Shown here piece by piece: positions 43,458-47,621 of a DNA stretch of 64,000 nucleotides (positions are counted from its first letter, which is position 1; every line of letters begins with the position of its first letter). The stretch comes from Micromonospora alfalfae. Lineage in GTDB: Bacteria > Actinomycetota > Actinomycetes > Mycobacteriales > Micromonosporaceae. Made by a program: the position numbers and the translations under genes. Below the pieces are notes generated by a model, which did not search any database, was not told where the DNA came from, and saw nothing but the letters and a program-made list of their open reading frames with translations. The stretch lies in assembly GCF_022230925.1 (NCBI RefSeq), contig NZ_JAKKFH010000055.1, positions 62,001 through 126,000 of the forward strand, read 5' to 3'.

Positions 43458-44330
43458 ATGGGTGACATCCTCGTGGGCACCGCGTCCTGGACCGACCGCA
43501 CACTGCTGGAATCGGGGTGGTATCCGCAGACCGCCGACACCCCGGAGAAGCGGCTGGCCTACTACGCCCGGCAGTTCCCGCTGGTCGAAGTGGACGCCAC
43601 CTACTACTCGCCGCCCGCCGAGGCGACAGCGCGGCTGTGGGCCGAGCGCACCCCGGCCGGCTTCACCTTCAACATCAAGGCGTTCAGCCTGCTGACCGGG
43701 CACCCCACCCGGGTCAGCGCGCTCTACAAGGACCTGCGCCCGGAGACCGACAAGAAGAACGTCTACCCCGACGACCTGCCCGCGCAGTCGTACGAGGAGG
43801 TCTGGACGCGCTTCCTGTCCGCGCTGGACCCGTTGGTCGAGGCCGGCAAGCTTGGCGCGCTGCTGTTCCAGTTCCCACCCTGGTTCACCATCAAGCGGGC
43901 CAACAAGCAGTACCTGCTGGAGGTGGCGAAGCGCTGCGCGCCACTGCGCCCGGTGTACGAGTTCCGGCACGCCTCCTGGTTCGACGGCGACAACGCCGAC
44001 GAGACCCTGGCCTTCCTGCGCGAGCACAAACTGCCGTACGTCTGCGTGGACATGCCGCAGGGCCACCGCTCGTCGCTGCCTCCGGTGCTGGCCGCCACCG
44101 CTGACCTCGCGGTCATGCGCTTCCACGGGCACAGCGACAAGTGGACAAGTAAGGACATTCACGAGAAGTTCGGCTACCACTACTCCAAGCGGGAGCTGGC
44201 GGACTGGGCGCCGAAGCTGCGCGAACTGGCCGACGAGGCCGGGCAGACCCACGTGCTCATGAACAACTGCTATCGCGACTACGCGCAGACCAACGCGACG
44301 ACCCTCGCGGGCCTCCTCGACGCCGGGTGA
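43458..44330 (+). CDS. DUF72 domain-containing protein
   Basis: The protein has 290 residues and a TIM-barrel-like DUF72 fold. Typical segments are ILVGTASWTDRTLLESGWYP at the start, EVDATYYSPPAEATARLWAERTP, FTFNIKAFSLLTGHPTR, LGALLFQFPPWF, YEFRHASWF and YVCVDMPQG. The conserved Glu/Asp, Tyr, Arg and His cluster suggests a metal or nucleotide site, but the activity is unknown. A second DUF72 protein lies at 45092 on the other strand. Confidence 0.9.
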   Translation: MGDILVGTASWTDRTLLESGWYPQTADTPEKRLAYYARQFPLVEVDATYYSPPAEATARLWAERTPAGFTFNIKAFSLLTGHPTRVSALYKDLRPETDKKNVYPDDLPAQSYEEVWTRFLSALDPLVEAGKLGALLFQFPPWFTIKRANKQYLLEVAKRCAPLRPVYEFRHASWFDGDNADETLAFLREHKLPYVCVDMPQGHRSSLPPVLAATADLAVMRFHGHSDKWTSKDIHEKFGYHYSKRELADWAPKLRELADEAGQTHVLMNNCYRDYAQTNATTLAGLLDAG

Positions 44331-45063: not shown

Positions 45064-45093
45064 GAGCCCGCCCGACCGTTGTCGGGCGGGCTC
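45064..45093. terminator. Bidirectional terminator hairpin
   Basis: A perfect 13-bp stem GAGCCCGCCCGAC with CGTT loop lies between the convergent DUF2267 and DUF72 genes and touches the latter's stop codon. Confidence 0.85.
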
Positions 45094-45871
45094 AGTCGTC
45101 GGCAGCGGCCGCCTCGGCGGCGGTCGGTACCCGGGACACCGGGTGCCCGGCCCTTCGGGCCAGCGCGGCGAACGCGACGGCGTCCACGATCGCGGCCCCG
45201 CCCGGATCGTTGTTGAAGTAGACGTACGCCGGCTCGTCCGGCCCGAAGGCGTCGGCCAGCCGGCCCACCCAGGATCGCAGCGCGGCCCGACCGTAGCGGG
45301 GCCACGGCCGCGCCCGCCCCTCGTGCAGCCGCAGGTAGCCGAAGTCGGTGGTGCGCCAGCGGGGGGCGACCGGGCGTCCCAGTCGGTCCGCCCAGACCAG
45401 CGCGGCCCGACGCCGTTCCAGCACCGCCCGGGTGGCGTCGGTCCACCAGGAGGGGTGCCGGGGTTCGACAGCGACCCGCACCTCCGCCGGAAACAGTCGC
45501 AGCGTCGCGTCCAGCGCCTCGACGTCCGCCCGCAGGTTCGGTGGGAGTTGCAACAGCACCGGGCCGAGCCGGTCACCGAGCGCGGTGGCGCGGCCGAGGA
45601 ACCGGGCCACCGGCTCCGCCGGGTCGCGCAGCCGCTTGATGTGGGTGAGGTAGCGGCTCATCTTCACCGCGATGCAGAAGTCCGCCGGGGTCCGTGCCCG
45701 CCAGGCGGCGAAGGTGTCCCGTTCGGGCAGCCGGTAGAAGGCGTTGTTGACCTCGACAGTGGCGAACCCGGCAGCGAAGTGCTCCAGCCAGAGTCGCTGC
45801 GGCAGCCGCTGCGGGTAGAAGCGGCCGCGCCAGTCCCGGTACTGCCAACCGGACGTGCCCACCAGGATCAC
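45092..45871 (-). CDS. DUF72 domain-containing protein (second copy)
   Basis: The protein has 259 residues: MILVGTSGWQYRDWRGRFYP at the start, EVNNAFYRLPERDTFAAWRARTP, FCIAVKMSRYLTHIKRLRD, LGPVLLQLPPNLR, VAVEPRHPSWW, and YVYFNNDPGGAAIVDA near the end. It belongs to the same superfamily as the 43458 protein but is the YecE-like branch. A GTG at 45871 is chosen because AGGA lies 7 nt before; a GTG one codon earlier is also possible. It is divergent from the repeat-peptide gene at 46029. Confidence 0.88.
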   Translation of the reverse strand: MILVGTSGWQYRDWRGRFYPQRLPQRLWLEHFAAGFATVEVNNAFYRLPERDTFAAWRARTPADFCIAVKMSRYLTHIKRLRDPAEPVARFLGRATALGDRLGPVLLQLPPNLRADVEALDATLRLFPAEVRVAVEPRHPSWWTDATRAVLERRRAALVWADRLGRPVAPRWRTTDFGYLRLHEGRARPWPRYGRAALRSWVGRLADAFGPDEPAYVYFNNDPGGAAIVDAVAFAALARRAGHPVSRVPTAAEAAAADD

Positions 45872-46028
45872 CACCCCATCCTGGCACTCTGCGCCGCCGC
45901 TCGTGAACTGCCCGTGTCGCAGTGGTTCGGCGTCTACGGTGAGGGTTAGAGAAGATCGCGCGTGGGGTACCACCCGCAGCACGACGGACCCCGGCGTACG
46001 GCGGGGCGGCACACCCGAGGGAGTACCG

Positions 46029-46334
46029 ATGGCACTCAACGATGACGACATGCAGACCACCGGCGGCGGCGGCGCGGAGGGTCCCGCTGACGGCGGTGCG
46101 ACCCCCGGTCAGCACGACGGTGGTGCCGATGGCGGCGCGGAGGGTCCCGCTGACGGCGGTGCGACCCCCGGTCAGCACGACGGTGGCGCCGATGGCGGCG
46201 CGGAGGGTCCCGCTGACGGCGGTGCCACCCCGGGTCAGCACGACGGTGGCGCCGACGGCGGCGCGGAAGGTCCCGCCGATGGTGGTGCCACCCCGGGCCA
46301 GCAGGACGGTGGCGCTGACGGCAGCGCCCGATAG
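46029..46334 (+). CDS. Repetitive Gly/Asp-rich protein, probable substrate of the adjacent JmjC oxygenase
   Basis: The protein has 101 residues. Residues 1-13 are a leader-like MALNDDDMQTTGG. Residues 14-97 are four tandem 21-residue units, GGAEGPADGGATPGQHDGGAD; the fourth reads GQQD. The tail is GSAR. It is acidic with no Cys, no aromatic residue and no signal peptide. GAGGGAG six nt before the ATG marks the start. A JmjC-type oxygenase gene starts 9 nt downstream. Repetitive, charged, leader-bearing proteins next to a modifying enzyme are typical RiPP precursors or multi-site substrates. By name such proteins have been annotated in databases as BatC-like, but I know of no established function. 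The repeats could instead be a linker-type protein. Confidence 0.75.
   Translation: MALNDDDMQTTGGGGAEGPADGGATPGQHDGGADGGAEGPADGGATPGQHDGGADGGAEGPADGGATPGQHDGGADGGAEGPADGGATPGQQDGGADGSAR
46068..46319 (+). repeat. Four 63-bp in-frame tandem repeats inside the repetitive gene
   Basis: The period is exactly 63 nt (starts 46068, 46131, 46194, 46257). Units 1-3 are nearly identical in DNA (shared start GGCGCGGAGGGTCCC), while unit 4 carries more changes, including the His to Gln codon. This suggests recent expansion from one unit. Confidence 0.9.
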
Positions 46335-46343
46335 CGGCTCGCC

Positions 46344-47621
46344 ATGACCTACCTCGACCCGCCGGGCGGCCACCACGGCCGCCCGGCGGTCCCGTCCGCT
46401 GAGGCCACCGCCGCGCTGGCCCGCTGCGTCTCGGTCGAACCGGCCAAGTTCGCCGCCGCGCACTGGGGGCGCACCCCGCTGCTGTCCCGAGCCGCCGAAC
46501 TGCCCGACCCGGCCGGCTTCACCGATCTTCTCAGCCCCGCCGACGCCGACGAGTTGCTGAGCCGGCGTGGTCTGCGTACCCCGTTCCTGCGCGTCGCCAA
46601 GGACGGCCAGTTGGTCGCTGCGTCACGCTGGACCGGCGGCGGCGGCGCGGGCGCCGAGATCGGCGACCAGGTGCTCGACGAGCGGGTCCTGGAGCAGTAC
46701 GCGTCCGGGGCCACACTGGTGTTGCAGGGGCTGCACCGGATCTGGCCGCCGCTCGTCGACTTCGCCCGCGACCTGGGCCTCGCGCTCAACCAGCCGTTGC
46801 AGATCAACGCCTACCTGACCCCGGCCGGCAGCCAGGGCTTCGCCACCCACTACGACACCCACGACGTGTTCGTGCTTCAGGTCGACGGCCGCAAGCACTG
46901 GCGGATCCACCCGCCGGTGCTACCGGACCCGCTGGAGAAGCAGCACTGGGGTGGGCGCGCCGACGAGGTCGGTGCCACCGCGCAGGGCCCGGCCGCGCTG
47001 GACGTGGTGCTCGCCCCCGGTGACGCCCTCTACCTGCCCCGGGGGTGGCTGCACAGCGCACAGGCGCAGGACACCAGCTCGCTGCACCTGACAGTGGGCA
47101 TCCGCGCGCTCACCCGTTACAACCTGGTCGAGGAATTGTTGACGCTGGCCGCCGAGGACCAGCGGCTACGGGCCAGCCTGCCGTTCGGCACCGACGTCGC
47201 CGACCCGGACGCCATCGAGCCGGAGCTGACCGAGACCGTGGAGGCGTTGCGGGACTGGCTGCTGCGCGCCGACCCGGTCGCTGTCGCCGCGCGACTGCGG
47301 CAGCGGGCCTGGCCGGCCGCCCGCCCGGCCCCGATCCGACCGCTCGCCCAGGCCGACGCACTGGCCACCCTGGACGCCGACTCCCGGGTCACCCCGCGGC
47401 CCGGCCTGCGCTGGCAGTTGGTGCCGCACGACTCGGACACTGTGGCGCTGCGGCTCTTCGACCGCACCATCACCCTTCCGGCGACCTGCGAGCCGGCCGC
47501 GCGCGCCCTGCTCACCGGCACTGTCACCCGGGTCGGTGACCTGCCCGGCCTGCCCGACGACGCCGACCGGGTCACCCTGGCCCGTCGACTGCTGCGCGAG
47601 GCCGTCCTGGTCCCGGCCTGA
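46344..47621 (+). CDS. JmjC/ribosomal-oxygenase-like 2-oxoglutarate Fe(II) dioxygenase
   Basis: The protein has 425 residues. The JmjC core is clear: INAYLTPAGSQGFATHYDTHDVFVLQVDGRKHWRIHPP holds the H-x-D iron pair and the Lys/His near the co-substrate site (~res 155-192). The distal His is in DALYLPRGWLHSAQAQ (~res 230-245). The winged C-terminal domain (~res 330-425) is the part found in RoxA/NO66/MINA-type enzymes. Those hydroxylate Arg or His of ribosomal proteins. Here the neighbouring gene is a repeat protein with one His per unit, so it is a natural candidate substrate (inference). The ATG has no clear Shine-Dalgarno and is probably coupled. Its role could also be ribosomal. Confidence 0.87.
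   Translation: MTYLDPPGGHHGRPAVPSAEATAALARCVSVEPAKFAAAHWGRTPLLSRAAELPDPAGFTDLLSPADADELLSRRGLRTPFLRVAKDGQLVAASRWTGGGGAGAEIGDQVLDERVLEQYASGATLVLQGLHRIWPPLVDFARDLGLALNQPLQINAYLTPAGSQGFATHYDTHDVFVLQVDGRKHWRIHPPVLPDPLEKQHWGGRADEVGATAQGPAALDVVLAPGDALYLPRGWLHSAQAQDTSSLHLTVGIRALTRYNLVEELLTLAAEDQRLRASLPFGTDVADPDAIEPELTETVEALRDWLLRADPVAVAARLRQRAWPAARPAPIRPLAQADALATLDADSRVTPRPGLRWQLVPHDSDTVALRLFDRTITLPATCEPAARALLTGTVTRVGDLPGLPDDADRVTLARRLLREAVLVPA

What the first reader, a model, noticed from the sequence alone, without database searches (positions are those of the whole stretch)
46029..47621. Repeat-peptide plus JmjC oxygenase pair: a possible new RiPP-like or multi-site hydroxylation system
A 101-residue protein consists of a short leader and four 21-residue units, each with one Gln-His-Asp (Gln-Gln-Asp in the last). 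Nine nt downstream starts a JmjC-type enzyme with a complete H-x-D...H iron site and a RoxA/NO66-like winged end. Enzymes of that branch hydroxylate Arg or His in ribosomal proteins. A repetitive, one-His-per-repeat protein beside such an enzyme suggests a dedicated substrate modified at each unit. I know of no described system of this exact kind.
Basis: partly seen in the sequence, partly recalled or inferred. Interest (0 to 1): 0.85.

Follow-up and report, generated by a model that had tools for sequence, protein, structure and literature searches.

The report
Aspartate-repeat peptide with its dedicated oxygenase
A small protein made of aspartate-rich repeats sits next to an iron-dependent oxygenase that probably adds oxygen to it many times; the same two genes travel together, often with a third, across a bacterial phylum, which points to a widespread peptide-modification system whose product is still unknown.

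Summary
In detail: a 101-aa protein (leader plus four 21-aa units) lies 9 nt before a JmjC oxygenase with a complete H-x-D...H site. The pairing is near-obligate. Of 205 distinct orthologous oxygenase genes (>=200 bits), 198 have an Asp-repeat ORF just upstream by a fixed rule; the 7 misses are one true absence, one altered peptide, one contig edge, two frameshifts and two Asp-rich peptides under the cut-off. The rule gives 0 of 379 for other ORFs of 34 such loci. All 49 peptide matches, in 44 of 394 class genomes, lie beside the oxygenase. In more distant clades and other classes the repeats change (TDGDATDTTDGDA, DADADST) but stay Asp-rich and keep an acidic leader. Outside Micromonosporaceae a Suc_Fer-like gene usually follows.

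His as target is not supported: 44 of 187 repeat peptides have no His unit. Asp is common to every type, so I propose iterative Asp hydroxylation of a RiPP-like precursor. The enzyme's C-terminal wing resembles RiPP recognition elements by fold, after NO66/MINA wings. No chemistry is shown. JmjC enzymes in RiPP pathways are known (BipG); I found no description of this Asp-repeat system in the searches I could run.

The parts
45944..45977 (+). nearly invariant upstream block (GGTTAGaGAaGATCG.GcGtGGGGTAC.CaCCCGC), possible promoter or regulator site
   Evidence: MAFFT consensus of 45 upstream regions, orthologues of 76% identity or more; function inferred
45989..46006 (+). CCCCG...CGGGG stem just before the ribosome-binding site
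   Evidence: same alignment; window sequence
46017..46023 (+). likely ribosome-binding site GAGGGAG of the peptide gene
   Evidence: window sequence; conserved in the alignment
46029..46334 (+). Asp-repeat peptide gene, 101 aa: proposed precursor/substrate
   Evidence: conserved partner of the JmjC gene; dN/dS
46029..46076 (+). leader, MALNDDDMQTTGGGGA; motif of the kind [LV]xD[DE][DE][IM]x[TS]
46077..46139 (+). repeat unit 1 (QHD)
46140..46202 (+). repeat unit 2 (QHD)
46203..46265 (+). repeat unit 3 (QHD)
46266..46328 (+). repeat unit 4 (QQD)
46344..47621 (+). JmjC_2 (PF08007) Fe(II)/2-oxoglutarate-type oxygenase, 425 aa
46848..46856 (+). iron ligands H169 and D171 (HYD)
   Evidence: invariant in 26 of 26 aligned orthologues; ligand role by family knowledge
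47052..47054 (+). iron ligand H237
   Evidence: invariant in 26 of 26 aligned orthologues
47385..47618 (+). C-terminal winged-helix domain, residues 348-425; RRE-like fold, proposed leader-binding site
   Evidence: predicted alone at pLDDT 91 (that model covers 330-425); best matches MINA/NO66 wings Z 10-13, then several solved RREs Z 5-7

Best explanation
This is the two-gene form of a RiPP-like peptide-modification system spread through the Actinomycetota. The short acidic leader (LNDDDMQTT here) is recognised by the winged C-terminal domain of the JmjC enzyme. The Fe(II)/2-oxoglutarate site then hydroxylates Asp residues of the repeats one after another, giving a polypeptide rich in beta-hydroxyaspartate. 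Outside Micromonosporaceae a Suc_Fer-like protein (by family knowledge a [2Fe-2S] ferredoxin) usually joins the operon, perhaps to keep the iron reduced or to work on the product. Shown: the gene pair, its conservation, the invariant iron-site residues, the leader motif, the Asp-rich repeats, the third gene elsewhere. Inferred: that the peptide is the substrate, that the wing binds the leader, that Asp is the target, that the reaction is hydroxylation, and any role of the product (metal binding is my guess).
For: Pairing: 198 of 205 distinct JmjC genes with >=200 bits have an upstream Asp-repeat ORF; 0 of 379 other ORFs in 34 loci do. The 7 misses: L019 contig edge (79 nt upstream), L185 and L213 frameshifted peptide, L246 and L248 Asp-rich but under the cut-off, L243 a non-repeat acidic peptide, L095 none. 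Reverse test: P0001 matches in 44 of 394 class genomes, 49 matches, all beside a JmjC match (compared by eye; at most 12 candidates scored per genome). Other classes: L287-L307. Asp: D, G and A are never absent from 175 distinct cores while H is absent from 32, N 87, Q 69, R 78, K 147; in 26 peptides of the other repeat types Asp is 9 to 34 per core while G is <=4 in 4 and A <=4 in 2. Peptide type follows the JmjC tree: 11 changes against 40.4 shuffled. Third gene: adjacent in 66 of 79 non-Micromonosporaceae peptide loci; two members scanned are PF06999. Leader kept while repeats change. RRE-like wing. JmjC RiPP precedent BipG (PMC12707348, passages).
Against: No chemistry was tested. In the DGGA class composition cannot separate Asp from Gly or Ala, and Pro and Glu are absent from only 6 and 7 of 175 cores, so they are excluded there by few peptides. 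In L290 Ala (35) outnumbers Asp (26), in L296 they are equal. Alpha-hydroxylation of Gly and cleavage at Ala by a 2OG enzyme is known (PMC12636437, passages). His is common (359 of 590 units). The nearest folds are His and Arg hydroxylases of ribosomal proteins, and their wings resemble RREs too, so the wing is not proof of leader binding; RRE matches have Z under 8, which may be a common arrangement only, and non-RRE proteins score alike. L095 lacks the peptide and genus g106 (L243, L286) has a non-repetitive one. 13 of 19 JmjC genes under 200 bits lack an Asp repeat by the rule. No other neighbour cluster reaches more than 3 of the 20 other-family loci (top 25 clusters shown, minor ones not identified, ORFs under 70 aa not called), so no maturation or export gene is in evidence. 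Micromonosporaceae do without the third gene: 2 of 146 loci have it, 5 being cut short; no PF06999 match in the window's genome.
Confidence: 0.55

Rival explanations
1. The peptide is the substrate but the outcome is not plain Asp hydroxylation: Gly or Ala alpha-hydroxylation (possibly cutting the backbone), Pro hydroxylation, or a four-electron or cross-linking oxidation of Asp.
For: G and A are never absent from 175 cores, P from only 6. A 2OG HEXXH enzyme hydroxylates Gly of a variant and cuts at Ala (PMC12636437, passages). Asp beta-hydroxylation and onward oxidation to aminomalonate by SmaO/SmaX is told in PMC13097080 (passages).
Against: In the other Asp-rich types G or A can fall to 2-4 per core while Asp stays high (L254, L289, L290, L291 for G; L289, L298 for A), and 4 of 27 have no Pro.
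Confidence: 0.2
2. One reading: one His per repeat is hydroxylated by a NO66/FIH-like reaction.
For: Window peptide has three QHD units; 359 of 590 units carry His; NO66 and MINA, the nearest folds, are named His hydroxylases in their PDB entries.
Against: 44 of 187 peptides have no His unit; 19 of 65 in the same-genus range; the slot drifts between QH, HQ, QQ, KQ, QR, RQ, KR; 23 of 26 peptides of the other Asp-rich types lack His.
Confidence: 0.06
3. The enzyme is a ribosomal oxygenase and the repeat protein is an unrelated acidic protein that happens to share the operon.
For: Only match of this query in the window's genome at E <= 1; fold of NO66, MINA, YcfD.
Against: Near-obligate pairing over about 30 families, co-varying peptide types, no orphan among the peptide matches; JmjC_2 genes of the same phylum without Asp repeats exist (13 of 19 under 200 bits), so the pairing is specific to this clade.
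Confidence: 0.07
4. The repeat peptide is not the substrate but a partner: an acidic scaffold, inhibitor or metal donor of the oxygenase, which acts on something else.
For: No maturation gene stands out among neighbours; highly acidic repeats could bind iron on their own (inference).
Against: A conserved leader kept beside freely changing repeats is the usual shape of a RiPP precursor.
Confidence: 0.12

Closest known systems
BipG/BpmG, JmjC ornithine gamma-hydroxylase of the biphenomycin RiPP pathway (PMC12707348, PMC12257519; passages seen)
   Same: JmjC Fe(II)/2OG hydroxylase acting on a ribosomal precursor peptide
   Different: Tailoring step on one Orn in a cluster with MNIO, radical SAM, arginase, protease and transporter; here the JmjC is the only enzyme next to the precursor in Micromonosporaceae, and the precursor is an Asp-rich repeat
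RRE-like domain fused to PF08007 JmjC proteins (PMC12710340, mSystems 2025; passages seen)
   Same: Same Pfam domain with an RRE-like fold; that paper says bacterial homologues about 30% identical appear in RiPP-like contexts
   Different: The passages seen name no Asp-repeat precursor, no Suc_Fer-like partner and no function; the whole text and supplement were not read
Corallotide graspetide (PMC13097080; passages seen)
   Same: Long precursor with five repeated motifs, each hydroxylated by a 2OG-Fe(II) oxygenase
   Different: Lys hydroxylation after macrocyclisation by a graspetide synthetase; none is among the window neighbours scanned
SmaO/SmaX Asp beta-hydroxylation (JACS 2025, known only through the passage in PMC13097080; original not held)
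   Same: Oxygenase acting on Asp of a RiPP precursor
   Different: N-terminal Asp in a graspetide cluster; not a repeat peptide; enzyme family not checked here
NO66, MINA53, RoxA/YcfD ribosomal oxygenases
   Same: Whole-length fold (NO66 Z 29.8, 385 residues, 5.1 A, 26% identity; MINA Z 28.8; YcfD Z 19.8)
   Different: Genome context: dedicated repeat peptide here; substrate untested
FIH on ankyrin repeats (PMC3569879; passages seen)
   Same: JmjC enzyme hydroxylating repeat sites: Asn, His and in one case Asp
   Different: Folded eukaryotic ankyrin repeats; weaker structural match (Z 12.9 over 199 residues at 3.7 A)

Membership tests
JmjC_2 / cupin-4 (PF08007) | Pfam profile above gathering score | tested here: met
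   102.5 bits against cut-off 22
JmjC_2 / cupin-4 (PF08007) | H-x-D...H iron triad | tested here: met
   H169, D171, H237 invariant in 26 of 26 aligned orthologues
JmjC_2 / cupin-4 (PF08007) | 2-oxoglutarate-dependent oxygenase activity | not testable with these tools
   sequence only
RiPP biosynthetic system | short precursor gene beside a modifying enzyme | tested here: met
   198 of 205 orthologues by fixed rule, background 0 of 379 ORFs in 34 loci; that the neighbour modifies it is inferred
RiPP biosynthetic system | conserved leader, variable core | tested here: met
   leader motif kept in DGGA and in other Asp-rich types; 175 of 204 peptides match one leader pattern. Exceptions: several peptides start MSE or MSD with a different leader
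RiPP biosynthetic system | leader-binding RRE domain | tested here: inconclusive
   fold matches to PqqD Z 7.3, TbiB1 6.7, PbtF 6.5, lasso B1 5.9, TruD 5.6, but NO66/MINA wings match better, non-RRE proteins score up to 8.0, and no RRE profile was run
RiPP biosynthetic system | post-translational modification of the core | not testable with these tools
   needs mass spectrometry
RiPP biosynthetic system | leader removal or export | tested here: inconclusive
   only the JmjC and Suc_Fer-like genes recur widely next to the peptide; minor neighbour clusters were not identified, and such genes can lie elsewhere
Ribosomal oxygenase (NO66/MINA/RoxA) | whole fold including wing | tested here: met
Ribosomal oxygenase (NO66/MINA/RoxA) | hydroxylates a ribosomal protein His or Arg | not testable with these tools
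   no activity data
Graspetide | ATP-grasp ligase in the cluster | tested here: inconclusive
   five window neighbours scanned: DUF72 twice, DUF2267, an FtsK-like protein, one without a Pfam match; neighbours in other genomes were clustered but not all identified

The most novel reading that the evidence does not exclude
A previously undescribed, phylum-wide class of ribosomal product: polypeptides carrying many beta-hydroxyaspartates, made by one JmjC enzyme guided by an acidic leader, serviced in most lineages outside Micromonosporaceae by a Suc_Fer-like ferredoxin, and acting as a polyvalent metal (iron or calcium) ligand. The repeat sequence is free to change as long as Asp density is kept.
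Probability: 0.35. Interest if true: 0.9.

Novelty: new variant of a known kind. Interest (0 to 1): 0.74.

Why it matters
If true, many actinobacterial species make a heavily oxygenated Asp-rich peptide that, as far as I could search, no one has described, with a single-enzyme pathway that should be easy to rebuild in E. coli. It would give relatives of the ribosomal oxygenases a new kind of substrate, give a reason why their wing looks like an RRE, and offer a one-enzyme route to proteins studded with hydroxyaspartate. The pair is small enough that one co-expression experiment decides it.

Tried and rejected
His as target: not supported. Chance repeat or wrong frame: rejected by dN/dS and conservation. 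A conserved wider cluster in Micromonosporaceae: neighbours recur in up to 8 of the 14 such loci, the larger clusters in none of the 20 other-family ones, so I took them as local synteny. First Asp-density rule (>=20% Asp in 40 aa) was dropped because it missed much of the DGGA type and hit 39 of 379 background ORFs; it was replaced by >=4 D[GSA]G[AST] or >=34% Asp, chosen after seeing the peptides. An earlier extraction rule lost 31 of 241 loci, mostly through bad start choice; its composition counts rest on the 175 distinct peptides that it did extract, some with wrong starts, with the core taken from residue 16. In one search row L303 was read in the wrong frame and is left out of my counts (26 of 27 kept), but the median Asp share 0.32 and the Pro count include it; two rows (L291, L292) had no leader match and used the last 60 residues. 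In one search the printed Suc_Fer tally counted some loci twice; one search is the corrected one. In one search the label of L106 (DPxD) looks spurious, and L289, L248 and L303, labelled none, do carry acidic peptides; the tree is a quick one with long branches among the paralogues. NCBIfam gave nothing for P0001 or P0002. Searches of the open paper library; no listed title, abstract or passage that I saw describes this system, but lists were capped (for example 12 of 28, 12 of 93 and 12 of 1,393 shown) and most subscription papers are not held. Iyer et al. 2010 (NAR gkq265, on peptide-modifying dioxygenases), which I recall as a likely place for an earlier prediction, is not held and was not read.

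Full report
Observation. The window holds an ORF at 46029-46334 (+) that reads as a 16-aa leader region, four 21-aa units and a final Arg. Tandem Repeats Finder gives period 63, 4.1 copies, 93% match. The JmjC ORF 46344-47621 starts 9 nt after the stop. Pfam places it in JmjC_2 (PF08007, E 1.6e-29); the nearest solved sequences are NO66 (E 1e-21), MINA and then RoxA/YcfD types. NCBIfam has no model for either protein. It is the only match of its own query in its genome at E <= 1. The closest named orthologues are Micromonospora (97% identity), so I take the genome to be a Micromonospora.

The pair is conserved. In 200 genomes of the family, 127 have a JmjC match at E <= 1e-20, including the own genome and 37 listed same-genus genomes (53 genomes without a match are not listed). 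I read the upstream DNA of 102 orthologous loci (51% identity or more): 100 show the repeat peptide, two of them only in part (L030 cut by the contig end, L085 frameshifted); L019 ends 79 nt upstream and L095 has none. Eight more distant JmjC genes (31-38% identity) have none of this type. A class-wide profile search (113 of 394 genomes at E <= 1e-30; 62 matches of 350 bits or more, of which brought in 58) and a phylum-wide one (36 of 246) extended this. With one fixed rule on 224 distinct JmjC genes, 198 of the 205 with 200 bits or more are positive, and 6 of the 19 weaker ones; 0 of 379 other ORFs of 34 of these loci are. Of the seven misses L095 has no peptide and L243 a non-repetitive acidic one; the rest are a contig edge, two frameshifted copies and two Asp-rich peptides below the cut-off.

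The reverse test also holds. Searching the same 394 genomes with the peptide gives matches in 44, and all 49 matches lie directly beside a JmjC match (I compared the two tables by eye). There is no orphan among these matches; at most 12 candidates per genome were scored, so weaker orphans could be missed.

Which residue matters. Within the genus the two-residue slot before Asp drifts: QH, HQ, QQ, KQ, KR, QR, RQ. Of 590 recognised units in 187 peptides 359 hold a His; 44 peptides have no His unit; of 65 peptides in the same-genus identity range 19 have none, 29 are mixed, 17 all-His. In 175 distinct peptides only Asp, Gly and Ala are never absent from the core; Pro is absent from 6 and Glu from 7. 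L233 is almost pure (DGGA)n. In more distant clades and other classes the repeat is rewritten, e.g. TDGDATDTTDGDAS (L252, L257), (DADADST)n (L254), DADAADADAS (L290), yet stays about one-third Asp (median 0.32 of 27 rows). Ala outnumbers Asp in one of these (L290). Asp is therefore the best candidate by elimination, with Gly and Ala, and less so Pro, not excluded.

Leader. The start of the peptide keeps an acidic motif through these changes: LNDDDMQTT here, LDDDDIRTS, LSDDDITGG, LTDEEIETV, VEDEDIVTT. 175 of 204 peptides match one simple leader pattern; several peptides instead begin MSE or MSD. A constant leader beside a freely changing core is what RiPP precursors look like.

Third gene. Clustering called neighbours of 34 wide loci gives one widely recurring partner, absent from the 14 Micromonosporaceae loci and present in 15 of the 20 others, directly after the JmjC gene. 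Two members scanned are Suc_Fer-like, PF06999. By tblastn it is adjacent in 66 of 79 non-Micromonosporaceae peptide loci (3 more within 600 nt, 9 without, 1 cut short) and in 2 of 146 Micromonosporaceae ones (5 cut short). The window's genome has no PF06999 match. Its electron-carrier nature is recalled family knowledge, not tested. No other cluster reaches more than 3 of the 20 other-family loci.

Enzyme structure. The AlphaFold model (pLDDT 89) matches NO66 along its length (Foldseek E 3.3e-28; Z 29.8 over 385 residues at 5.1 A). The C-terminal 96 residues folded alone (pLDDT 91) match the wings of MINA and NO66 (Z 10-13) and then, among others, a series of RiPP recognition elements: PqqD 7.3, MccB 6.7, TbiB1 with leader 6.7, PbtF RRE 6.5, ThcOx 6.2, NisB 6.2, lasso B1 5.9, TruD 5.6. 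Non-RRE proteins such as Rv2067c (Z 8.0) and GdmN (6.9) are in the same range, so this is suggestive only. A recent RRE paper reports RRE-like folds in PF08007 JmjC proteins of fish and algae and RiPP-like contexts for bacterial homologues (PMC12710340, passages).

Evolution. On a quick tree of 103 JmjC proteins, peptide type needs 11 changes against 40.4 for shuffled labels (label flaws are told under Tried and rejected). The peptide gene itself shows dN 0.004-0.085 and dS 0.27-1.13. Unit number varies from two to six in the same-genus range, and units within a gene tend to share the slot letters (all HQD but the last in L005 and L008, all KQD in L012), as expected of repeats that homogenise.

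Mechanism proposed. Leader docks on the wing; the Fe(II)/2OG site hydroxylates Asp in successive repeats. JmjC enzymes can act on RiPP precursors (BipG, PMC12707348, passages) and on Asp (FIH, in one case, PMC3569879, passages), so the chemistry has precedent, but no step is shown for this protein. What the product does is unknown; hydroxyaspartate as a metal ligand is recalled knowledge and my guess.

Novelty. Ten library searches (listed under Tried and rejected) showed no description of this system; the literal string DGGADGG occurs in no held paper. Most subscription papers and Iyer et al. 2010 were not available, so an earlier prediction may exist. I file it as a new variant of a known kind (RiPP-like), not as a proven member, since modification is untested.

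Noticed in passing
window 45944-46006: Nearly invariant 34-nt block and a CCCCG/CGGGG stem upstream of the peptide gene in 45 close orthologues, suggesting a regulated promoter.
   Followed up: partly
L308 5838-5984 (Streptomyces clavuligerus plasmid); L099, L251, L255: More distant JmjC_2 genes follow short non-repetitive ORFs with DPxD motifs, e.g. SLEPDEIEVI...DNDPSDP...DPDPFDP: perhaps a second RiPP-like type.
   Followed up: partly
L243, L286: Genus g106 keeps a JmjC orthologue with a non-repetitive acidic peptide with a shared end (DDPELxGADLxEDQ) instead of the repeats.
   Followed up: no
L303: Two-unit peptide PTEDDENLDAPGEHSQDTGDE after a leader-like ITDNDITSG: acidic repeats of yet another kind.
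   Followed up: no
L185, L213: Peptide gene with the repeats out of frame: assembly error or decay.
   Followed up: partly
window 43458-44330 (+) and 45092-45883 (-): Two DUF72 (PF01904) genes close together upstream, one divergent from the peptide gene.
   Followed up: no
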